Below, one piece after another: positions 6,866-56,498 of a stretch of 64,000 bases of DNA; position 1 is the first letter of the stretch; each line of letters opens with the position of its first letter. The translations under genes and the position numbers were made by a program. Origin of the DNA: Streptomyces sp. JB150 (GTDB taxonomy: Bacteria > Actinomycetota > Actinomycetes > Streptomycetales > Streptomycetaceae). A model generated the notes under the pieces. It was given only the letters and a program-made list of their open reading frames with translations. It did not search any database and had not been told where the DNA came from. The stretch covers positions 5,003,803-5,067,802 of the forward strand of contig NZ_CP049780.1 of assembly GCF_011193355.1 (NCBI RefSeq). The letters are read 5' to 3'.

Positions 6866-8821
6866 GTGGGACGCCACAGCCGCCGGGGGCCGGCCCCCAA
6901 GGACGGGACCACCGGAACCACCGGCGCCAGCGCCAGGGGGACGGGACGACGGAGAGCCGCGGGGACGGCGGCCGAGGCCGCGCCTGCGGGGGAAGCGGGA
7001 CCTGCGGGGCCTGCGGGGGATTCGGGACCCGCGGGACGCGGGGGGCAGGCGGGTTACTCGGGCCACTCGGGGCTGTCCGGATCCGCGGAGGGGTCGGGGG
7101 TTGCCGGGGAGGCGCCGCTTGCCGGGGCATCCGGAGCGCCGGGGGCACCTGGGGCTGCGGGAGCCGCGGGGAGAGCGAGGGCGGTGAGGCCCGGTTTTCC
7201 CGACGGGACGCCGCCTCGTGGCGTACCCGGATTCTCCGCCGGCACGCCCGGACAGGGCGTGCCGCGCTTTGTCGAGGGCACGCCGGCTCATGGCGTACCG
7301 AGGCTGCCCGACGGGACGCCGGCACGCGGTGTCCCCAGGTTTCCTGACGGGACGCCGGCGCGCGGAGTCCCGAGGCTCGCTGAGGGGACGCCTCCGCGCG
7401 GTGTGCCCCGCTTCGCTGAAGGGACGCCTCCGCGCGGTGTGCCCCGCTTCGCTGAAGGGACGCCTCCGCGCGGTGTCCCTCGTTTCGCTGACGGGACGCC
7501 GGCGCAGGGTGTGCCCCGCCTTCCTGACGGGACGCCGGCGCAGGGTGTGCCCCGCTTCCCGGACGGCACCCCCGCGCACGGCACGCCCCGTCGCTCCGGT
7601 GGCACCCCCGCGCGCGGGGTCCCCCATGTGCGCGGCGGGCACCCCGAGCAGCGGGAAGCCGGCGGAGGCTGGGGTGAGACGGCAGGTCCGGGGGCGCACG
7701 ATGCCGGGATACCGCCACAGCGGCCGAGCACGGGCCAGGCGGGCCAGGCGGGCAAGGCGCGTCGGGCGAGTCGGGCCGGGGCGGCGGGAAGCGCGCCGGG
7801 TGCCACCGGTGGCAGGCCGCGGCAGGACTACCTCGACGCCTTCGCCGCGGACGAGGCGGCCGACGACGTCTTCACCCGCCGTACGCACCGTACGCACGCG
7901 GCGGGCCCGGCCGAGCCGGCGGAACGCACGGACGGCGCGGAGCCGTACGCCTCCACCGCCCGCCGGGACGGCACCGGCGGCACCCCGCCCACCGACGCGT
8001 CCGCGCGCGGGCGGGGCGGCAAGGGGCGGGCGTTCGCCGGAGTCGCCGCAGCGGCGGTGACCACCGTGCTCGCCGTGGTGGTCGCGGGGCAGGTCGCCGA
8101 CGGGCAGGAGGGCGGCGCCGTACGCTCGCAGGCCGGAGCCGGCGGGGCGCGGGCGGACCACGACTCCGCCTCGCGGGGCGACGGCCGGCCGACGCCGTCC
8201 GGCACACCGACCCCGGTGCCGCTGACGTACGAGCAGAGGATGGCCCGGAAGTACCCGCTGAGCCCGTCGCTGGAGGGCTCCGGGAAGTTCGAGGCGATCC
8301 CCGGCATCGACAAGGCGCCGGGGAGGGGCGAGAAGTACACCTACCGGGTGGACGTCGAGGAAGGGCTCGGGCTGGACGGCGAGCTGTTCGCGCAGGCCGT
8401 GCAGCGGACCCTCAACGACGACCGCAGCTGGGCGCACAACGGTGGCCGCACCTTCGAACGTGTCCACTCCGGCGAGGTCGACTTCGTGATCACCCTCGCC
8501 AGCCCGGGTACGACCGCCGACTGGTGCGCCAGATCGGGACTCGACACGACGATCGACAACGTCTCGTGCGACTCCGCGGCCACCGAACGCGTGATGATCA
8601 ACGCCTACCGCTGGGCGCAGGGCTCGCCGACGTACGGCGACGAGATCCACGCCTACCGCCAGATGCTGATCAACCACGAGGTCGGCCACCGGCTCGGCTA
8701 CTCGCACGTGACCTGCGACAAGGACGGTGATCTCGCCCCGGTCATGCAGCAGCAGACCAAGTTCCTGGAACACGACGGGATCCGGTGCGAGCCCAATCCC
8801 TGGCCGTATCCACGAAGTTGA
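6866..8821 (+). CDS. DUF3152 membrane-anchored putative zinc metalloprotease with long repeat region
   Basis: 651 residues with three parts. Residues 1-110 are basic, then Gly-rich with collagen-like GxP/GxA triplets. Residues about 113-260 are a tandem array of 12-residue units of the form GTPxxGVPRFxE/D. After a disordered stretch, one hydrophobic segment (about 392-412, AAAAVTTVLAVVVAGQV) should anchor the protein with its C-terminus outside. The C-terminal DUF3152 domain contains HEVGHRLGYSH near residues 609-619, the HExxHxxGxxH zinc signature of metzincin-like proteases. The family occurs next to moeZ in mycobacteria (Rv3207c, recalled). Substrate unknown. GTG start; the 12-mer array looks recently expanded because several units are identical in DNA. 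Confidence 0.85.
   Translation: MGRHSRRGPAPKDGTTGTTGASARGTGRRRAAGTAAEAAPAGEAGPAGPAGDSGPAGRGGQAGYSGHSGLSGSAEGSGVAGEAPLAGASGAPGAPGAAGAAGRARAVRPGFPDGTPPRGVPGFSAGTPGQGVPRFVEGTPAHGVPRLPDGTPARGVPRFPDGTPARGVPRLAEGTPPRGVPRFAEGTPPRGVPRFAEGTPPRGVPRFADGTPAQGVPRLPDGTPAQGVPRFPDGTPAHGTPRRSGGTPARGVPHVRGGHPEQREAGGGWGETAGPGAHDAGIPPQRPSTGQAGQAGKARRASRAGAAGSAPGATGGRPRQDYLDAFAADEAADDVFTRRTHRTHAAGPAEPAERTDGAEPYASTARRDGTGGTPPTDASARGRGGKGRAFAGVAAAAVTTVLAVVVAGQVADGQEGGAVRSQAGAGGARADHDSASRGDGRPTPSGTPTPVPLTYEQRMARKYPLSPSLEGSGKFEAIPGIDKAPGRGEKYTYRVDVEEGLGLDGELFAQAVQRTLNDDRSWAHNGGRTFERVHSGEVDFVITLASPGTTADWCARSGLDTTIDNVSCDSAATERVMINAYRWAQGSPTYGDEIHAYRQMLINHEVGHRLGYSHVTCDKDGDLAPVMQQQTKFLEHDGIRCEPNPWPYPRS
7200..7640 (+). 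repeat. 36-bp tandem repeats within the DUF3152 gene
   Basis: About twelve 36-bp units, each encoding a 12-residue block (GTPxxGVPRFxE or close). Copies around 7390-7490 are nearly identical in DNA, with gggacgcctccgcgcggtgt repeated, so the array should be prone to slippage or recombination. The frame is kept throughout. Confidence 0.9.
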
Positions 8822-8907
8822 CGCACGCGTGACCTTCCGTACGCGTGTGATGCCTTAGCGCGACAAACGCGGTCCGCGCGGGAAAGTCACGACCGTTCAC
8901 CCCTTTT

Positions 8908-8941
8908 GGTGGCGCGATGGACAACCGTCCGTCGCGCCACC
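8908..8941 (+). terminator. Strong 15-bp hairpin upstream of the Pel-like operon
   Basis: Arms ggtggcgcgatggac and gtccgtcgcgccacc with one G-U pair and an AACC loop. It lies 86 bp after the DUF3152 stop and 79 bp before the glycosyltransferase start. It could terminate the upstream gene or sit in the operon leader. No T-run follows. Confidence 0.6.
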
Positions 8942-9020
8942 GGCTTGTCCGCATACGTTCGTCCCGCTGCGAGCCGCCGGCCGACGGCGGCTCCCCACAC
9001 GGGAGATCGGGGGTGCACTC

Positions 9021-10982
9021 GTGCGCATCGGACTGCTGACCGAGGGTGGCTATCCGTATGTGAGCGGTGATGCCAGGATCTGGTGCGACCGGCTGGTGCG
9101 CGGACTCGGGCAGCACGAGTTCGACGTCTACGCGCTCAGCGGCAGCGAACGCCAGGAGGACGAGGGCTGGGTCCCGCTCCCGCCCCAGGTCACCCGGGTC
9201 CGGACGGCACCGCTGTGGACGGTGGAGGACGACGGCGTCGTTCACGGGCGGCGCGCGCGCCGGCGCTTCTCGGAGGCGTACGGCGAGCTGGCCGTCGCGC
9301 TGTGCTCCGGTTCCGCGGAGACGGTGGTACTGACGCAGGACGCCTGCGCCGTTGAGGCGGACCGTTTCGCCAGCGCTCTGTACGGGCTCGCCGAGCTGGC
9401 CCGCGAGGAGGGCGGACTGGCCCGCGCGCTCCGCTCCGAGACCGCCGTCCGCGCGCTGGAGCGCGCCTGTCGCGCGCCCGGCGCGCCCCGCACGGCGCGT
9501 GCGGCGCGCGTACCGGATCTGCTCGCCGTCGCCGCACACCTCGAACGCGCCCTGCGCCCCCTCTCGCTCGACTGGTACGAGGACGACGGGCTCGGCTCGG
9601 TCGACCTCTGCCACGCCGCCTCCGGCGGTGCCGCCGCCCTCTGCGGACTCCTCGCCCGGCACTTCCACGGCGTACCGCTGCTCGTGACCGAGTACGGCGT
9701 GCGGCTGCGGAGCCACTACCTGGACGCCGGCCACCACACCCCGGCCGTACGGGCCCTGGCCGCCGCCTTCCACGGCCGGCTCGCCGCCGAGATCTACCGG
9801 CGGGCCGAACGCATCACACCCGGCAACGCGCACGCCCGCCGCTGGCAGGAACGCTGCGGCGCCGACCGGGCCAAGCTGCGCACCGTCTACCCCGGCATGG
9901 ACGCCGCCCCCTTCGCGGAGGTGGGCGAGGCGCCGGAGGCCGCCGGCCCCGGCACGCTGGTCTGGGTGGGCCGGATAGAACCGGCCAAGGACCTCGTCTC
10001 GCTGCTGCACGCCTTCGCCGAGGCGCGCAGGGAGGAGCCGAAGACCCGGCTGAGGATCATCGGCGCGCCCGCCGGAACCGAGGGCGCCGCCTATCTCGCC
10101 CACTGCCGGGCGCTCGCCGCGCAGCTCTTCCCCGACGAGGCCGACGGGCCGCACGCCGTCGGCGACAACCCCGTCTCCTTCGAGGAGATCGGTGACCCGG
10201 AGGTCCCGACGCGCGCCGAGGCGTACGCCTCCGGCGCGGTGGTCGTGCTGTCCAGCGTCGTCGAGGGCTTCCCGGTCGGCCTCGTGGAGGCCATGTTCTG
10301 CGCCCGCGCGACCGTCTCCACCGACGTCGGCGCGGTGGTGGAAGTCATCGGCGGCACGGGGCTCGTGGTGCCGCCGCGCAACCCCAGGGCGCTCGCGGAG
10401 GCGTGCGTGGCGCTGCTGCGCGATCCCGAGCGCCGTGCGCGCCTCGGGGCCGCGGCGCGCGCCCGGGCGCTCGAACTCTTCACCGTCGAGCAGAACATCG
10501 CCGCCTTCCACGGCATCTACCTGGAGATCGTCGCGCAGTGCCCGGTCCGCCGGATCGTCGTCGACGACAACGGGGAGCCGCTGCCGTTCGCCGTGCCCGC
10601 GGAGGCGCGGGTGGCGGGGAGGTGGACGACCGGGGTGGTGGCGCGGGAAGCGGGAGCGAGGGCTGAGGTCGGAGCCGGAGCCGGAGCCGGGCTGGGGGCT
10701 GGGTCGGGAGCCGGAGTCGAGGCGGGGGCGGGTTCCAGGGCAGAGGCGCGGGGCGTGGGGGCGCAGGGCGCGAGGGCGCGCGGTGTGGGGGCGCGTGGGC
10801 CCCGGTGGGCGGGGGAGTGGGAGCCGGCGCGGGGCGCGGGGGCGGCCTTATCCGCCGGACCTGCGGTGTCGGCCGGATCCGCGATGTCTGCTGTGTCTGC
10901 TGTATCTGCTGTGTCTGCGGTGTCGCAGGCGTCGTCGGGCGCGGGTGGGGCGGTCGTGTCTGGCGTGGAGGTGGGCCGATGA
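9021..10982 (+). CDS. PelF-like GT4 glycosyltransferase (DUF3492)
   Basis: 653 residues. The N-terminal DUF3492 signature LLTEGGYPYVSGDARIWCDR is characteristic of PelF, the cytoplasmic transferase that builds Pel polysaccharide from UDP-GalNAc in characterised systems. Further PelF-like landmarks: TEYGVRLRSHYL near 227, ERITPGNAHARRWQ near 268, GRIEPAKDL near 316 and the donor-site EX7E motif EGFPVGLVE near 414-422. From about residue 545 the protein becomes a low-complexity Ala/Gly/Val/Ser tail with AVSAVSAVS repeats, not part of the family fold. GTG start preceded by a GGGGG stretch. Its stop overlaps the next start by ATGA. Substrate assignment is inference; other GT4 roles remain possible. 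Confidence 0.85.
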   Translation: MRIGLLTEGGYPYVSGDARIWCDRLVRGLGQHEFDVYALSGSERQEDEGWVPLPPQVTRVRTAPLWTVEDDGVVHGRRARRRFSEAYGELAVALCSGSAETVVLTQDACAVEADRFASALYGLAELAREEGGLARALRSETAVRALERACRAPGAPRTARAARVPDLLAVAAHLERALRPLSLDWYEDDGLGSVDLCHAASGGAAALCGLLARHFHGVPLLVTEYGVRLRSHYLDAGHHTPAVRALAAAFHGRLAAEIYRRAERITPGNAHARRWQERCGADRAKLRTVYPGMDAAPFAEVGEAPEAAGPGTLVWVGRIEPAKDLVSLLHAFAEARREEPKTRLRIIGAPAGTEGAAYLAHCRALAAQLFPDEADGPHAVGDNPVSFEEIGDPEVPTRAEAYASGAVVVLSSVVEGFPVGLVEAMFCARATVSTDVGAVVEVIGGTGLVVPPRNPRALAEACVALLRDPERRARLGAAARARALELFTVEQNIAAFHGIYLEIVAQCPVRRIVVDDNGEPLPFAVPAEARVAGRWTTGVVAREAGARAEVGAGAGAGLGAGSGAGVEAGAGSRAEARGVGAQGARARGVGARGPRWAGEWEPARGAGAALSAGPAVSAGSAMSAVSAVSAVSAVSQASSGAGGAVVSGVEVGR

Positions 10983-12343
10983 GGGACGTCGACCTGGACC
11001 GGCCCGGGACGCCCGACAGCCCCGGAGCGTGGGACGCCCGCTCGGAGCAGTGGCTGGCGGTAGGCGGCGTGGCGGCGGACGAGCCGGTGGAGGGCGCCGG
11101 TGACGCGCCCGCCGGTCCGCGCCCAGGCGCCGCTTCCGGTTCCGCCGCCTCCGGGGGTGTGGCCGCGGACGGCCGTCCGGGCCGCGCAGGTGGCCGTGAG
11201 TCCGCCGTACCTCCCCGCCGAGGGCCCGCCGACCCCGTCAAGGCCCTGATGCACCGTCACCGGGAGCTCTGCGCGCGGGCCGTGGACCCGCTGGAGATCG
11301 CGGCCGGTCTGGAAGCGCACGGCATCACCGACCGTACCGCCGCCCGGTTTCGCCACCGGGACGTGTTCTCCCTCGCCGAGGAGATGTTCGCGCGCGTCCC
11401 GCGCGCCGCCGACGCGCCGACGCGCCCGGTCGCGGCCGACCCGCCACGGGTGCGCGCGGAGTGGATCGTCCGCAGCCTGCTGCCCGGTGCCGCGGGCGTC
11501 GCGACCCTCGCCGGGCTGCGCCTCACCGACGGGCAGGTGCGCCTCGTCGTGGCCGCCGTGGGCGTGGTGACCCTCGCGCTCGCCGTACGCGCCGCCCTGA
11601 CCCGGGGACCGCTGAGCGCGCACCGTACCCGCCCGAAGTCCCCACCCCCCGCCACCGGCCTGCGCGTGTGGACCTGCTGGCTCCTCGCCTACGCCGTCTT
11701 GGGCGACGGCCTGCTGACCGCCGTCGCCACCGGTGGCCCCGACACCCTGCCCACCGGCACCCCGCACTCCTCCTGGCCGGTCGACACGGCCGTCCTGTCG
11801 GCCCTCGCCCTCTCCTGCGCCCCCGCCGCCTGGAGCGCGCACCTGCTGACGGCCGGCGCGCGCCGCAGACTCACGGCCAGCCGTGGCCTGGAGGAGTTCG
11901 CCGGCGCCGTACGGCCGCTGCTGCTCGGCGCGTCCGCCCTGTACCTGGCGGCCCTGGCCATGCTCCACGCCCTCACGGCCGCCGTCCTGCAGGAGCCCGC
12001 CGACCACGCCCGGACCCTCACCCTGGGCGCCCTGCTGCTGCTCGCCCGCCTCCTCGTCGCGCACGGCTTCCGCCACGCTCCGGCGCTGGTCCTGGGCGTC
12101 GCGGCGGCGGCCGAGGCGCTGGCCGTCGCCGCGCTGTTCGCCGCCCGCCTGCCGGGCTGCGGATTGCTCGCGCTGCCCGTGCGCGGCCTCCTGGACGGCT
12201 GGGGCGCGGGCAGTGTCCCGGTCCTCGTCTGCGGCGCCGGTGCCCTGACCTTGCTGATCCACGCGGGCCGCAGGCTCACCCGCGCCTCGGCGCACGCCGT
12301 GGCGCAGGCGCCGGCTTTGGTCGTACGGGACGACCGATGCTGA
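10979..12343 (+). CDS. Polytopic membrane protein of the Pel-like operon
   Basis: 454 residues starting at an ATG that overlaps the preceding stop (ATGA), so translation is coupled. Residues 1-160 are hydrophilic and contain a compact block around HRELCARAVDPLEIAAGLEAHG and FRHRDVFSLAEEMFARVPR that recurs in actinobacterial membrane proteins (recalled). About eight hydrophobic segments follow from residue 160 to 440, giving a cytoplasmic N-terminus and an integral membrane body. It is not recognisably PelG or PelE, but its place after PelF suggests it supplies the membrane export or platform function. Function inferred from context only. Confidence 0.75.
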   Translation: MRDVDLDRPGTPDSPGAWDARSEQWLAVGGVAADEPVEGAGDAPAGPRPGAASGSAASGGVAADGRPGRAGGRESAVPPRRGPADPVKALMHRHRELCARAVDPLEIAAGLEAHGITDRTAARFRHRDVFSLAEEMFARVPRAADAPTRPVAADPPRVRAEWIVRSLLPGAAGVATLAGLRLTDGQVRLVVAAVGVVTLALAVRAALTRGPLSAHRTRPKSPPPATGLRVWTCWLLAYAVLGDGLLTAVATGGPDTLPTGTPHSSWPVDTAVLSALALSCAPAAWSAHLLTAGARRRLTASRGLEEFAGAVRPLLLGASALYLAALAMLHALTAAVLQEPADHARTLTLGALLLLARLLVAHGFRHAPALVLGVAAAAEALAVAALFAARLPGCGLLALPVRGLLDGWGAGSVPVLVCGAGALTLLIHAGRRLTRASAHAVAQAPALVVRDDRC

Positions 12344-12537
12344 CCGCCGTCGACGCCATGGCCGCCGGCTCCGCCGCCTCCGCCGCTTCCCCGGCGTCGG
12401 AACGCCTCGGCCGTCCCGCATCCGGCGCCGCACCGGCCACGCGGCCGTGCCGCCGCCCCGAACCATCCATCCGCCGCCCCGGCGCCCGGCCAGGCCGCCA
12501 CAGGCAGCCGCACCACCCCCTCGAAGGAGAACACCAG

Positions 12538-12861
12538 ATGACCACCTCCCGACCCGGACACCCCGGAGCGCCCGGAGCCACCGGCGCGTTCGGCGTTCCC
12601 TCAGGAGCGAGCGGACCTGCCGTAGCCGGCGGAGCCGCCACAACCGGCGGACCTGCCGCAGCCGGCGGACCTGCCGTGATCGGCGGAGTCACCGTGACCG
12701 GCGGAGCCGCCGTGACTCGCGAAGTCACCGTGACCGGTGGAGCCGTCACAGCCGGCGGCGGAGTCGCCGTAGCGAACGGCGGACCCGGCGGCGCCCCGAG
12801 GCCGCCGGTGGCAGCCGGAACCCTCACCTCCGCCGCGCTCACCCGGGGAGGCGCCCGATGA
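12538..12861 (+). CDS. Low-complexity Gly/Ala/Val/Thr-rich small protein
   Basis: 107 residues beginning MTTSRPGHPGAPG, dominated by repeated GGAAVTGG-like units. The ATG at 12538 has AAGGAG 10 nt upstream, the best ribosome site in this operon, and its stop overlaps the epimerase start by ATGA. The same frame is open back to an ATG at 12337 that overlaps the previous stop, giving 174 residues, but without a good ribosome site. No domain recognised; it may be a structural peptide or mainly a translational coupling element. Reality as a protein is uncertain. Confidence 0.5.
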   Translation: MTTSRPGHPGAPGATGAFGVPSGASGPAVAGGAATTGGPAAAGGPAVIGGVTVTGGAAVTREVTVTGGAVTAGGGVAVANGGPGGAPRPPVAAGTLTSAALTRGGAR

Positions 12862-13898
12862 GGGTCCTGCTGATCGGAGCCAACGGCTACATCGGCCGCT
12901 TCGTCGCCGACCGCCTGCTCGCCGACCCGGCCGTGCAGCTCACCGCCCTCGGCCGCGGCGACGACGCCGACGTCCGCTTCGACCTCGCGTCCGGCAGCCC
13001 CGGCGCGCTCACCCGCTTCCTCGACGCGGTCCACCCCGGCGTCGTGATCAACTGCGCGGGAGCCACCCGGGGCGGAGCGCGGGAACTCACCCGGCACAAC
13101 ACCGTCGCCGTCGCCACCGTGTGCGAGGCGCTGCGGCGCAGCGGCTGCGGGGCCCGCCTGGTGCAGATCGGCTGTTCCGCCGAGTACGGCCCCAGCCAGC
13201 CCGGCTCGTCCACCGCGGAGGACGCCGTTCCGCGCCCCGGCGGTCCGTACGGCGTCAGCAAGCTCGCCGCCACCGAGCTGGTCCTCGGCTCCGGCCTGGA
13301 TGCGGTCGTCCTGCGCGTCTTCTCGCCCGCCGGGCCCGGCACCCCCGCCGGATCGCCGCTCGGCCGCCTCGCCGAGGCCATGCGCCGGGCCATGCAGACC
13401 GGCGACGGCGAACTCAAACTCGGCGGCCTGGGCGTCCAGCGGGACTTCGTCGACGTACGGGACGTCGCCCGCGCGGTGCACGCCGCCTCGCTCTCCGCCG
13501 CGCAGGGCATCATCAACATCGGCTCCGGCCGTGCCGTACGGCTGCGCGACGCGGCCGCGACGCTCGCGCGCGTGGCCGGCTACGGCGGCGCCCTGCACGA
13601 ACTGGACGGCCCGCCCGGCCCGCACCGCCCGTCCATCGGGCACCCGCGCCCCGAAGTCCTCGGCCACCACCGCGGCGAGGTCCTCGCCCACCACCGGGGC
13701 GAAGCCCTGGGCCACCACCGCGGCGACGCCGACCACCCGCAGCACACCGCCCCGGTCGCCTACCCCTACCCGGACGGCTGCGGCAGCTGGCAGCAGGCGG
13801 ACGTCCGCACCGCCCGCGACCGGCTCGGCTGGCGGCCCCGCATCAACCTCGAGGAGTCCCTGGCCGACATCTGGATGGAGGCGGCATGCCGCATCTGA
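12858..13898 (+). CDS. NAD-dependent sugar-nucleotide epimerase/dehydratase
   Basis: 346 residues of the extended short-chain dehydrogenase fold. Seen: NAD-binding GANGYIG (7-13), catalytic Ser region IGCSAEYG near 110 and YGVSK near 132 (YxxxK), then a C-terminal substrate domain ending RLGWRPRINLEESL. In Pel systems a C4-epimerase (PelX type) makes UDP-GalNAc from UDP-GlcNAc; the same role is inferred here from the adjacent PelF-like gene. Residues 265-296 form a His-rich insert of four 8-residue repeats absent from the normal fold. ATG overlaps the upstream stop; the 3' end overlaps the next gene by 13 nt. Confidence 0.87.
   Translation: MRVLLIGANGYIGRFVADRLLADPAVQLTALGRGDDADVRFDLASGSPGALTRFLDAVHPGVVINCAGATRGGARELTRHNTVAVATVCEALRRSGCGARLVQIGCSAEYGPSQPGSSTAEDAVPRPGGPYGVSKLAATELVLGSGLDAVVLRVFSPAGPGTPAGSPLGRLAEAMRRAMQTGDGELKLGGLGVQRDFVDVRDVARAVHAASLSAAQGIINIGSGRAVRLRDAAATLARVAGYGGALHELDGPPGPHRPSIGHPRPEVLGHHRGEVLAHHRGEALGHHRGDADHPQHTAPVAYPYPDGCGSWQQADVRTARDRLGWRPRINLEESLADIWMEAACRI
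13650..13745 (+). repeat. 24-bp tandem repeat encoding His-rich octapeptides
   Basis: Four consecutive in-frame 24-bp units (13650, 13674, 13698, 13722) encode PEVLGHHR, GEVLAHHR, GEALGHHR and the decayed GDADHPQH. The insert is near the end of the epimerase and is unlike other members of the family that I know. Confidence 0.9.
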
Positions 13899-14635
13899 CC
13901 AGCCGGCCGGTCCCCGCCGCGGGCACCGGCGTCCGCACCGGCCTCGGCGCCCCCGGCTACGCCCACCCGCTGCTCGCCCCGGCCGAGTGGGGCGAGCTGA
14001 CCCGCCCGGGTACGCCCGTGCACTGGGCGGTGCTCAACGTCGCTCAGGGACCGGGCACCCGCCCCGACCCGCACTGCCTCCAGGCGGCCGTCCGCCTGCG
14101 CGCGGCGGGCGTCCGCGTCCTCGCCCACCTGGACCTGACCTACGGCGCCCGCCGGTTCGGGGACGTGATCTCCGACGCGCACCGCTACCTCGACTGGTAC
14201 CGGGTCGACGGCTTCCTGCTGGACCGCTGTCCGTCCGACCGCGTCTCGCTGTCCGAGACACGCCGTATCGCCACCACGCTCCGCGCGCTGCGTGACGGTG
14301 CCCACATCGTGCTGGGCCACGGCACCCACCCGTACCCCGGCTACGCCGACACCGCGGACCAGCTGGTCACCTTCAACGGCCCCTGGAGCGACTACCGCTG
14401 GTCGCAGGCGGCGGAGTGGACCGCCGACCATCCGCCCGAACGGTTCTGTCACTTGGTGCACGGCGTTCCCCGAGGTCACCTGGACGAGGCGCTGCGCGTG
14501 GCCCGCTGGCAGGGAGCGGCGACGATCTGGTTCACCGACCGCACGGGCGCGGGCGGCCGCACCGACCCCTGGGAGGCCCTGCCCGGCTACTGGGACGACA
14601 TCGTCTCGCGTGTCGGAACAGGTGTCTCGGAATGA
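13886..14635 (+). CDS. Spherulation-specific family 4 (Spherulin-4) glycoside hydrolase-like protein
   Basis: 249 residues matching the Spherulin-4 family, a TIM-barrel group related to the polygalactosaminidase/PelA hydrolase domains. Seen: GAPGYAHPLL at the start, WAVLNVAQGPGTRPDP near 50, VLAHLDLTYGARR near 80 and DGFLLDRCP near 110, which carries the likely catalytic acid, then LGHGTHPYPGY. No signal peptide, so export would need another route. ATG at 13886 with GGAGG 5 nt upstream lies inside the end of the epimerase gene (13-nt overlap). It probably trims or modifies the polymer made by the operon. Family call is firm; substrate is inferred. Confidence 0.85.
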   Translation: MPHLTSRPVPAAGTGVRTGLGAPGYAHPLLAPAEWGELTRPGTPVHWAVLNVAQGPGTRPDPHCLQAAVRLRAAGVRVLAHLDLTYGARRFGDVISDAHRYLDWYRVDGFLLDRCPSDRVSLSETRRIATTLRALRDGAHIVLGHGTHPYPGYADTADQLVTFNGPWSDYRWSQAAEWTADHPPERFCHLVHGVPRGHLDEALRVARWQGAATIWFTDRTGAGGRTDPWEALPGYWDDIVSRVGTGVSE

Positions 14636-14697
14636 AAAAGGCCGTGGCAGTGTTACGGGTGAACAACCGTACTGATTGACCGACCAACGGAGTCCCC

Positions 14698-15876
14698 GTG
14701 TCGCTGCCACCCCTGGTCGAGCCGGCTGCCGAGCTCACCGTAGACGAGGTCCGCAGGTACTCCCGCCACCTGATCATCCCCGACGTGGGGATGGACGGGC
14801 AGAAGCGGCTGAAGAACGCGAAGGTGCTCTGTGTGGGCGCCGGCGGCCTGGGCTCGCCGGCCCTGATGTACCTGGCCGCGGCGGGCGTGGGCACGCTCGG
14901 CATCGTGGAGTTCGACGAGGTCGACGAGTCGAACCTGCAGCGCCAGATCATCCACAGCCAGGCCGACATCGGCCGCTCCAAGGCCGAGTCCGCGCGCGAC
15001 AGCGTCCTGGGGATCAACCCGTACGTGAACGTGGTCCTTCACGAGGAGCGGCTCGAGGCCGACAACGTGATGGACATCTTCAGCCAGTACGACCTGATCG
15101 TCGACGGCACGGACAACTTCGCGACCCGCTACCTGGTCAACGACGCCTGCGTGCTGCTGAACAAGCCGTACGTCTGGGGCTCGATCTACCGCTTCGACGG
15201 CCAGGCCTCCGTCTTCTGGTCCGAGCACGGTCCCTGCTACCGCTGCCTCTACCCGGAGCCCCCGCCCCCCGGCATGGTCCCCTCCTGTGCCGAGGGCGGC
15301 GTGCTGGGCGTGCTGTGCGCGTCCATCGGCTCCATCCAGGTCACCGAGGCGATCAAGGTCCTCACCGGCACCGGCGAGCCGCTGGTCGGCCGGCTGATGA
15401 TCTACGACGCCCTGGAGATGCAGTACCGCCAGGTCAAGGTCCGCAAGGACCCCGACTGCGCGGTCTGCGGCGAGAACCCCACCGTCACCGAGCTCATCGA
15501 CTACGAGGCCTTCTGCGGCGTCGTCTCCGAGGAGGCCCAGGCGGCGGCCGCCGACTCGACGATCACTCCCAAGCAGCTCAAGGAGTGGATCGACGACGGC
15601 GAGAACATCGAGATCATCGACGTCCGCGAGGTCAACGAGTACGAGATCGTCTCGATCCCCGGCGCCCGCCTGATCCCGAAGAACGAGTTCCTCATGGGCA
15701 CCGCCCTGGAGACCCTGCCCCAGGACAAGAAGATCGTCTTGCACTGCAAGACGGGTGTCCGCAGTGCGGAAGTCCTCGCTGTCCTCAAGTCCGCCGGCTT
15801 CGCGGACGCCGTCCACGTCGGCGGCGGAGTCATCGGCTGGGTCAACCAGATCGAACCGCACAAGCCGGTCTACTGA
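14698..15876 (+). CDS. moeZ: MoeZ, sulfur-carrier adenylyltransferase/sulfurtransferase
   Basis: 392 residues: an N-terminal ThiF/MoeB E1-like domain and a C-terminal rhodanese domain. Seen: ATP site GAGGLGSP near 50-57, YxxxYPEPPPPGMVPSCAEGG with the zinc/catalytic Cys region and paired CAVC, then the rhodanese loop HCKTGVRS near 350. It adenylates the C-terminal glycine of MoaD/CysO/ThiS-type carriers and loads sulfur as a thiocarboxylate, serving molybdopterin, cysteine and thio-natural products. GTG start. It has its own 62-bp gap after the Pel-like operon and is followed by a hairpin terminator. Confidence 0.95.
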   Translation: MSLPPLVEPAAELTVDEVRRYSRHLIIPDVGMDGQKRLKNAKVLCVGAGGLGSPALMYLAAAGVGTLGIVEFDEVDESNLQRQIIHSQADIGRSKAESARDSVLGINPYVNVVLHEERLEADNVMDIFSQYDLIVDGTDNFATRYLVNDACVLLNKPYVWGSIYRFDGQASVFWSEHGPCYRCLYPEPPPPGMVPSCAEGGVLGVLCASIGSIQVTEAIKVLTGTGEPLVGRLMIYDALEMQYRQVKVRKDPDCAVCGENPTVTELIDYEAFCGVVSEEAQAAAADSTITPKQLKEWIDDGENIEIIDVREVNEYEIVSIPGARLIPKNEFLMGTALETLPQDKKIVLHCKTGVRSAEVLAVLKSAGFADAVHVGGGVIGWVNQIEPHKPVY

Positions 15877-54260: not shown

Positions 54261-54334
54261 CGCGGGGTGGAGCAGCTCGGTAGCTCGCTGGGCTCATAAC
54301 CCAGAGGTCGCAGGTTCAAATCCTGTCCCCGCTA
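54261..54334 (+). tRNA. Initiator tRNA-fMet (CAT), copy 1
   Basis: 74 nt, CCA not encoded. Anticodon loop CTCATAA. Initiator marks: three G-C pairs in the anticodon stem (CTGGG/CCCAG) and an unpaired first position (C1 against U72). T loop TTCAAAT. A TACGGT -10-like box lies 14 nt upstream; a hairpin terminator follows. Confidence 0.96.
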
Positions 54335-54342
54335 CTGAAAGA

Positions 54343-56416: not shown

Positions 56417-56490
56417 CGCGGGGTGGAGCAGCTCGGTAGCTCGCTGGGCTCATAACCCAGAGGTCGCAGGTTCAAATCCTGTCCCCGCTA
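56417..56490 (+). tRNA. Initiator tRNA-fMet (CAT), copy 2
   Basis: 74 nt, identical base for base to copy 1, with the same initiator features and no encoded CCA. Flanks differ, so this is not a recent large duplication of the whole segment. Confidence 0.96.
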
Positions 56491-56498
56491 CTGAAGAT

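What the first reader, a model, noticed from the sequence alone, without database searches (positions are those of the whole stretch)
9021..14635. Candidate Pel-like exopolysaccharide operon in Streptomyces
A PelF-type transferase (DUF3492), a membrane protein, an epimerase and a Spherulin-4-type hydrolase overlap end to start. In Pel systems these are the polymerising enzyme, export platform, UDP-GalNAc source and hydrolase. No PelG, PelD, PelB or PelC is recognisable, so this is a reduced or different architecture. It lies between the DUF3152 and moeZ genes, which I recall as near neighbours in mycobacteria, suggesting an insertion.
Basis: partly seen in the sequence, partly recalled or inferred. 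Interest (0 to 1): 0.8.

Follow-up and report, generated by a model that had tools for sequence, protein, structure and literature searches.

The report
Reworked Pel/GAG-type sugar operon of Streptomyces
In Streptomyces bacteria a small operon that resembles slime-polymer (Pel/galactosaminogalactan) machinery has kept its sugar-making enzyme almost unchanged, while its glycan-cutting enzyme has lost a residue needed to cut, so it probably serves colony development rather than making an ordinary biofilm polymer.

Summary
The four genes are real: a PelF-type glycosyltransferase, a membrane protein, an NDP-sugar SDR and a Spherulin-4/GH135 protein, inserted between DUF3152 and moeZ and inherited vertically across the Streptomycetaceae. 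It is not a reduced Pel cluster but a derived paralogue of the Agd3-type (galactosaminogalactan-like) operons known from bacteria. The same genome holds two fuller ones, each with an Agd3-like protein, PelF GT, membrane protein, GH135 and GH114. In the window's lineage the Agd3-like gene and GH114 are missing. The GH135 acid/base Glu is replaced in 99 of 99 readable Streptomyces copies; 26 of 26 readable other homologues keep it. The SDR's catalytic Ser is Cys in 99 of 99; the GT's TEHG motif is TEY in 91 of 93. The transporter model has 3+6 instead of 6+6 helices. All genes are under purifying selection, the SDR as strongly as moeZ. The SDR resembles 4-keto-reductases more than GalE. By gene order this is SCO5174-5177; three of the four are reported 8-14-fold up at 48-72 h in differentiating S. 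coelicolor, and SCO5174 mutants make less actinorhodin. Best reading: a repurposed developmental glycan system with a non-cutting GH135. No activity was tested.

The parts
9021..10982 (+). PelF-type GT4 glycosyltransferase (DUF3492 + GT4), 653 aa, with a low-complexity, variable C-terminal tail
   Evidence: E(x7)E kept; HGGVS loop replaced by G-D/E-x-x and TEHG by TEYG (Tyr225, codon about 9693-9695)
10979..12343 (+). membrane protein, 454 aa: conserved N-terminal helical motif (about aa 91-142) and a shortened MOP-type transporter (3+6 long helices in the model)
12344..12857 (+). 514-bp spacer with 18/36-bp repeats; contains a small ORF that is not conserved
12858..13898 (+).
13886..14635 (+). 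Spherulin-4/GH135 homologue, 249 aa, predicted catalytically dead: acid/base Glu is Asn164 (codon about 14375-14377); Asp113 kept here
8908..8941 (.). inverted repeat, 15-bp arms and 4-nt loop, about 80 bp upstream of the GT start; candidate operator or leader hairpin of the operon
6866..8821 (+). DUF3152 protein, left boundary of the insertion
14698..15876 (+). moeZ (MoeB/rhodanese), right boundary of the insertion

Best explanation
This is a repurposed paralogue of a galactosaminogalactan/Pel-like operon, working in Streptomyces development. SHOWN by sequence: a PelF-type GT, a membrane protein, an NDP-sugar SDR and a GH135 protein without its acid/base Glu form a vertically inherited unit between DUF3152 and moeZ, with its own conserved leader dyad, under purifying selection. 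SUGGESTED by models: the membrane protein is a shortened MOP-type transporter. REPORTED by others for S. coelicolor, with the gene mapping inferred by me: co-induction in the differentiating mycelium, and reduced actinorhodin in GT mutants. INFERRED: in the cytoplasm the SDR makes or interconverts an NDP-sugar (more likely by a 4-keto-sugar step than as UDP-GalNAc 4-epimerase). The GT adds it to a chain or lipid acceptor. The membrane protein anchors the GT and passes or holds the product at the membrane. The GH135 protein, in whose sequence I see no signal peptide (no tool run), binds the nascent glycan without cutting it (length or GT control) and has become dispensable in some genera.
For: Acid/base Glu: 0 of 99 readable Streptomyces copies keep it (S66 A16 R10 T2 Q2 D1 C1 N1) against 26 of 26 readable other Spherulin-4 homologues. 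Nucleophile Asp kept in 76 of 99. The tree puts all moeZ-locus copies together (SH-aLRT 100), with Glu kept only in L202. SDR Ser to Cys 99 of 99 against Ser 8 of 8; GT His to Tyr 91 of 93 against His 16 of 16. Median dN/dS over 12 pairs: SDR 0.07, Spherulin-4 0.25, GT 0.26, membrane 0.41, moeZ 0.10. MOP likeness. Fuller paralogous operons. Membrane-protein match in 45 of 45 same-genus genomes and 0 of 15 of other families of the order. SCO5174/5175/5177 up log2 3.0-3.8 at 48-72 h (PMC3610822 section 16); SCO5174 mutants lower actinorhodin (PMC6585502 passages).
Against: No activity, product or interaction was tested. A missing Glu predicts, but does not prove, loss of cleavage, and one copy has Asp there. 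The GT keeps E(x7)E, Arg and Lys in most rows, so it may be an ordinary polymerase. Cys for Ser in the SDR may only slow it. Both membrane models rest on shallow alignments (20 and 14 rows), and Foldseek alone found nothing for the window model. SCO numbers were mapped by gene order, not by sequence. The SDR also occurs without a recognised GT (L230, L237), so it may have a separate job; in L237 it even has Phe for the catalytic Tyr.
Confidence: 0.5

Rival explanations
1. Genuine Pel/GAG-type exopolysaccharide operon: SDR supplies the sugar, GT polymerises, membrane protein exports. Only the trimming hydrolase has been lost; deacetylation is done by the Agd3-like enzymes of the two other clusters, or the polymer stays acetylated.
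For: GT above the curated PelF cut-off with the GT4 motif kept (Glu415 in 90 of 91 and Glu423 in 91 of 91 readable rows); MOP-like membrane protein; fuller paralogous operons in the same genome; galactosamine polymers and an endogalactosaminidase reported for Streptomyces (cited in PMC7229062, passages).
Against: Shortened first transporter lobe in the model; GT donor loop and TEHG motif changed across the genus; SDR closer to 4-keto-reductases than to GalE; no CE18 or GH114 hit in 22 of 22 loci nor in 80 of 80.
Confidence: 0.22
2. Operon in decay: only the SDR has a selected function (an unrelated NDP-sugar step); GT, membrane protein and GH135 are passengers being lost.
For: Only the SDR is recognised between DUF3152 and moeZ in L230, and SDR plus GH135 before moeZ in L237; no GH135 hit in 11 of 20 family loci; eroded copy L063; GT of L062 lost further motifs; membrane dN/dS 0.41.
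Against: dN/dS about 0.25 for GT and GH135; many GH135 residues outside the active site, C-terminal ones included, identical in 21 of 21 rows; 20 of 22 loci intact in order; reported co-induction of three of the four genes.
Confidence: 0.23
3. The GH135 protein still acts as a hydrolase by an altered mechanism (another acid/base, or substrate-assisted).
For: Nucleophile Asp kept in 76 of 99 rows; clear family match.
Against: Position 164 varies among S, A, R, T, Q, D, C and N; Asp113 is lost in 23 of 99; position 144, Asn in 26 of 27 paralogue rows, is Gly in 97 of 99.
Confidence: 0.05

Closest known systems
Bacterial Agd3 (CE18) exopolysaccharide operons (Bamford et al. 2020, PMC7229062, section 13 and passages read)
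   Same: Cytoplasmic GT, multi-spanning membrane protein and, in some Actinobacteria, a Spherulin-4 gene in one operon
   Different: Window locus has no CE18 and no GH114 gene; its GH135 lacks the acid/base Glu; its membrane protein is shorter than in the paralogues
Gram-positive Pel operon pelDEADAFG (Whitfield et al. 2020, PMC7112168, passages read)
   Same: PelF-type GT; epimerase-type and hydrolase genes near by; MOP-like transporter as analogue of PelG (placing of PelG recalled)
   Different: No PelG by Pfam, no deacetylase here; PelD not detected (uninformative search); Spherulin-4/GH135 instead of a PelA-type hydrolase
Aspergillus Sph3 (GH135; PDB 5C5G, 5D6T)
   Same: Same family by sequence (E about 2e-6)
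   Different: Sph3 Glu222 aligns with Asn164 of the window protein
GDP-6-deoxy-D-lyxo-4-hexulose reductase (PDB 2PK3)
   Same: Best solved match of the SDR profile (80.8 bits)
   Different: The Ser of 2PK3 is Cys in the window clade

Membership tests
PelF (NCBIfam NF038011) | score above curated cut-off, better than other GT4 groups | tested here: met
   104.7 bits vs cut-off 100; next model EpsE 76.9. Paralogues in the same genome score 165 and 162
Pel biosynthesis cluster | PelG exporter (PF16933) | tested here: not met
   No Pfam match of the membrane protein; best in the genome 28 bits, cut-off 29, elsewhere
Pel biosynthesis cluster | PelA-type deacetylase in the operon | tested here: not met
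   None of the four products matches a deacetylase family
Pel biosynthesis cluster | PelD c-di-GMP receptor | tested here: inconclusive
   PF16963 rang neither in the genome nor in any of the 14 controls
Pel biosynthesis cluster | GalN/GalNAc polymer product | not testable with these tools
   needs chemistry
Bacterial Agd3-type (GAG-like) operon | cytoplasmic GT plus multi-spanning membrane protein | tested here: met
Bacterial Agd3-type (GAG-like) operon | CE18 deacetylase and, usually, GH114 | tested here: not met
   no hit at 22 of 22 and 80 of 80 orthologous loci; found in L013 and L014 of the same genome, the Agd3 match being below the Pfam cut-off
GH135 (active hydrolase) | Asp nucleophile and Glu acid/base | tested here: not met
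   Asp113 kept, Glu is Asn164
Spherulin4 Pfam family PF12138 | score above gathering cut-off | tested here: met
   83.2 bits vs 30.2
UDP-glucose 4-epimerase (GalE) | GalE model score and Ser/Thr-Tyr-Lys triad | tested here: not met
   TIGR01179 33.5 bits vs cut-off 262.3; Ser is Cys106, Tyr131 and Lys135 kept
MOP superfamily transporter | two six-helix lobes | tested here: inconclusive

The most novel reading that the evidence does not exclude
A complete polysaccharide synthesis-and-cleavage operon was converted step by step within one bacterial family into a developmental device. Its hydrolase became a non-cutting glycan-binding subunit, its transporter lost half a lobe, and its GT and SDR acquired new, fixed active-site residues for a different sugar or acceptor. 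Likely intermediates survive in living genera: L202 keeps hydrolase Glu and SDR Ser; L207-L213 keep GT His and SDR Ser but have no hydrolase hit; L230 keeps the SDR alone.
Probability: 0.35. Interest if true: 0.8.

Novelty: new variant of a known kind. Interest (0 to 1): 0.6.

Why it matters
A near-universal Streptomyces locus, apparently switched on in the differentiating mycelium, is read by family models as 'PelF' and 'Spherulin-4', and its active sites say otherwise. If right, it offers a testable envelope-glycan component of Streptomyces development in a laboratory strain, a graded natural series of enzyme-to-pseudoenzyme conversion inside one operon, and a warning against transferring Pel/GAG function by family hit. 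The two fuller paralogous operons, one with its own NDP-sugar genes, give the matching active controls.

Tried and rejected
Fifth gene between membrane protein and SDR: rejected (repeats, variable gap, weak scattered tblastn hits).

PelG or PelD elsewhere in the genome: PelG only below cut-off; the PelD search is uninformative, as no control rang.

Foldseek for the window membrane model found nothing (best E 0.18); the MOP reading rests on the second aligner, the paralogue model and hhalign.

Rfam: no match over 8700-14800. Sigma-70 and T-run terminator scans: nothing.

Recent transfer of the locus: rejected, since the place beside moeZ is the same across the family.

Miscounts corrected: minus-strand loci were read in the wrong orientation, repeated correctly. 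In one search the GH135 columns of the eight type-B clusters come from a wrong-frame query (bSPH) and are not used. In one search the 'other genera' group includes L215, which is same-genus. The tree left out L063 and the other-homologue rows that were under 100 or over 260 residues. The 27 control Spherulin-4 rows are all matches that were given loci and do not lie at the moeZ locus; L078 gave no sequence, and one further match (G017:C426) was not examined.

Literature: no description of this derived locus seen in searches (open-licence PMC papers only; one of ten searches unused). The catalytic role of the GT's TEHG His and donor loop, the S/T-Y-K triad of SDRs and PelG's membership of the MOP superfamily are recalled, not from a call.

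Full report
WHAT IS THERE. The window lies in a complete 7.3-Mb genome. Between DUF3152 (6866-8821) and moeZ (14698-15876) lie a PelF-type GT, a membrane protein, an NDP-sugar SDR and a Spherulin-4 protein. GT and membrane protein overlap by 4 bases; SDR and Spherulin-4 overlap by 13, as in 20 of the 21 same-genus loci measured, the exception being the eroded copy L063. The 514-bp spacer before the SDR holds repeats and no conserved gene.

DISTRIBUTION. With the window's membrane protein as single query, 23 of 25 same-genus genomes and 0 of 16 others matched; the two without a match are drafts of 630 and 1140 contigs. In 22 same-genus loci fetched, 20 have GT, membrane protein, SDR, Spherulin-4 and moeZ in this order; L060 is a 4.3-kb contig and L063 is eroded. 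In these 80 loci moeZ is found in 80, Spherulin-4 in 79, membrane protein in 77 and GT in 74, several loci being cut by contig ends. With the membrane-protein profile, 45 of 45 same-genus genomes match and 0 of 15 genomes of other families in the order. In the family draw, 48 of 61 genomes in 14 of 17 genera match, some perhaps only through paralogues. Twenty loci taken from that draw, 19 of them from ten other genera, all have SDR and moeZ hits; GT is found in 19 and Spherulin-4 in 9. In 4 of 11 further loci, from two other genera of the family and another family of the order, DUF3152 and moeZ lie about 106-190 bp apart with nothing recognised between. Of the other seven, one has the SDR only (L230), one SDR plus Spherulin-4 (L237), one is rearranged, and four gave no hit to DUF3152 or to the operon. 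This supports an insertion early in the family.

PARALOGUES. The same genome has two more DUF3492 GTs, each in a fuller operon. L013 (type A) has an Agd3-like protein (Agd3_CE E 1e-4, below the Pfam cut-off), PelF GT (165 bits), membrane protein, LegB-like dehydratase (446 bits, cut-off 475), nucleotidyltransferase, SDR, GH135 and GH114 (283 bits). L014 (type B) has an Agd3-like protein (E 0.005, below cut-off), PelF GT (162 bits), membrane protein, GH135 and GH114 (297 bits). Of 20 other GH135 neighbourhoods fetched, 7 are type A (GH114 hit in 4), 7 type B (GH114 hit in 5) and 6 neither. Such operons were described by Bamford et al. 2020 (PMC7229062, section 13). The window locus is therefore a third, derived type.

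ACTIVE SITES. Sph3's catalytic pair is given in PMC12054363 (passages) as Asp196/Glu222; the alignment puts the Asp 56 residues before Glu222, so '196' is probably a misprint for 166. In the window protein the Glu is Asn164. Over window plus 98 further copies (same-genus loci and the named set, two duplicates dropped) the residue is S66, A16, R10, T2, Q2, D1, C1, N1 and never E, and the nucleophile Asp is kept in 76 of 99. Of 27 other Spherulin-4 homologues from the family search, 26 were readable and 26 keep both. In the tree all moeZ-locus copies group together (SH-aLRT 100); the two deepest rows are L237 (Asp in place of Glu) and L202 (Glu kept). The SDR keeps Tyr131 and Lys135, but the Ser of the triad (aligned to the Ser of 2PK3) is Cys in 99 of 99 readable rows of this set, against Ser in 8 of 8 type-A SDRs. 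In the 19 loci of other genera it is Cys in 10 and Ser in 9; L230 and L237 have Ser, and L237 has Phe for the catalytic Tyr. The GT's HGGVS loop has Asp or Glu for the second Gly in 92 of 92 readable rows against Gly in 15 of 15 canonical GTs; TEHG is TEY in 91 of 93 against His in 16 of 16. Glu415 is kept in 90 of 91, Glu423 in 91 of 91, Arg318 in 90 of 94, Lys323 in 93 of 93. GT and SDR positions are thus fixed to new residues, which looks like replacement and not random decay, whereas the GH135 position drifts.

SELECTION. Over 12 close pairs the median dN/dS is 0.07 (SDR), 0.25 (Spherulin-4), 0.26 (GT), 0.41 (membrane protein) and 0.10 (moeZ).

SUGAR. The SDR profile's best solved match is GDP-6-deoxy-D-lyxo-4-hexulose reductase (80.8 bits); GalE reaches 47.8. 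The type-A operon pairs its SDR homologue with a 4,6-dehydratase and a nucleotidyltransferase. So a 4-keto-sugar step is more likely than UDP-GalNAc supply; this is inference.

REGULATION AND PHENOTYPE. An inverted repeat with 15-bp arms at 8908-8941 is found in 102 of 132 loci examined with a pattern that fixes the inner 12 bases; several of the rest lack the region. It lies upstream of the lone SDR in L230 and was not found in the four empty sites, so it belongs to the insertion. At four variable pairs, changes that keep a G-U pair on the + strand outnumber the opposite ones 56 to 13 (related sequences, no tree control), hinting at RNA. The leader folds better than all 200 shuffles (z -5.8). 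In S. coelicolor SCO5178 is moeB/sulfurylase (PMC4340878, passages) and SCO5183-5184 are helicases (PMC6637917, passage), so the operon should be SCO5174-5177. SCO5174 ('Transferase'), SCO5175 and SCO5177 rise by log2 2.2-2.6 at 24 h and 3.0-3.8 at 48-72 h in the multinucleated over the first mycelium (PMC3610822, section 16); SCO5176 is not in that table. SCO5174 mutants, described as lacking a putative glycosyltransferase, make less actinorhodin (PMC6585502, passages).

CONCLUSION. A real, family-wide locus, misread by family labels. It most likely works as a developmental glycan system with a non-cutting GH135 (0.5). Rivals are a genuine polymer operon that has lost trimming (0.22) and decay around a separately needed SDR (0.23).

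Noticed in passing
window 8908-8941: Inverted repeat (15-bp arms, 4-nt loop) in the leader; found in 102 of 132 loci; compensatory and G-U-type changes suggest an RNA hairpin or operator.
   Followed up: partly
L013 6986-16637: Agd3-like, GT, transporter, LegB-like dehydratase, nucleotidyltransferase, SDR, GH135, GH114 operon: a GAG-like cluster with its own NDP-sugar genes, hinting at a 6-deoxy or otherwise modified polymer.
   Followed up: partly
L014 5998-12919: Second Agd3-like, GT, transporter, GH135, GH114 operon in the same genome; its GH114 starts with a lipoprotein-like signal (LPAM_1 17.9 bits, cut-off 20).
   Followed up: partly
L063 (G010): Eroded copy of the operon beside an intact moeZ; GT, SDR and membrane hits are partial.
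   Followed up: no
window 13631-13730: 24-bp tandem repeat in a variable loop of the SDR, which makes the window protein 346 aa against 304-337 in 20 orthologues.
   Followed up: no
L012 / L015 (G000:C1:1494908-1495285): Weak PelG-profile match (28 bits, cut-off 29) inside a 1278-aa open frame.
   Followed up: no
window 54261-54335 and 56417-56491: Two tRNA-Met (CAT) genes 2 kb apart.
   Followed up: no
PMC12054363: Sph3 nucleophile printed as Asp196; its spacing to Glu222 in the alignment points to residue 166.
   Followed up: partly
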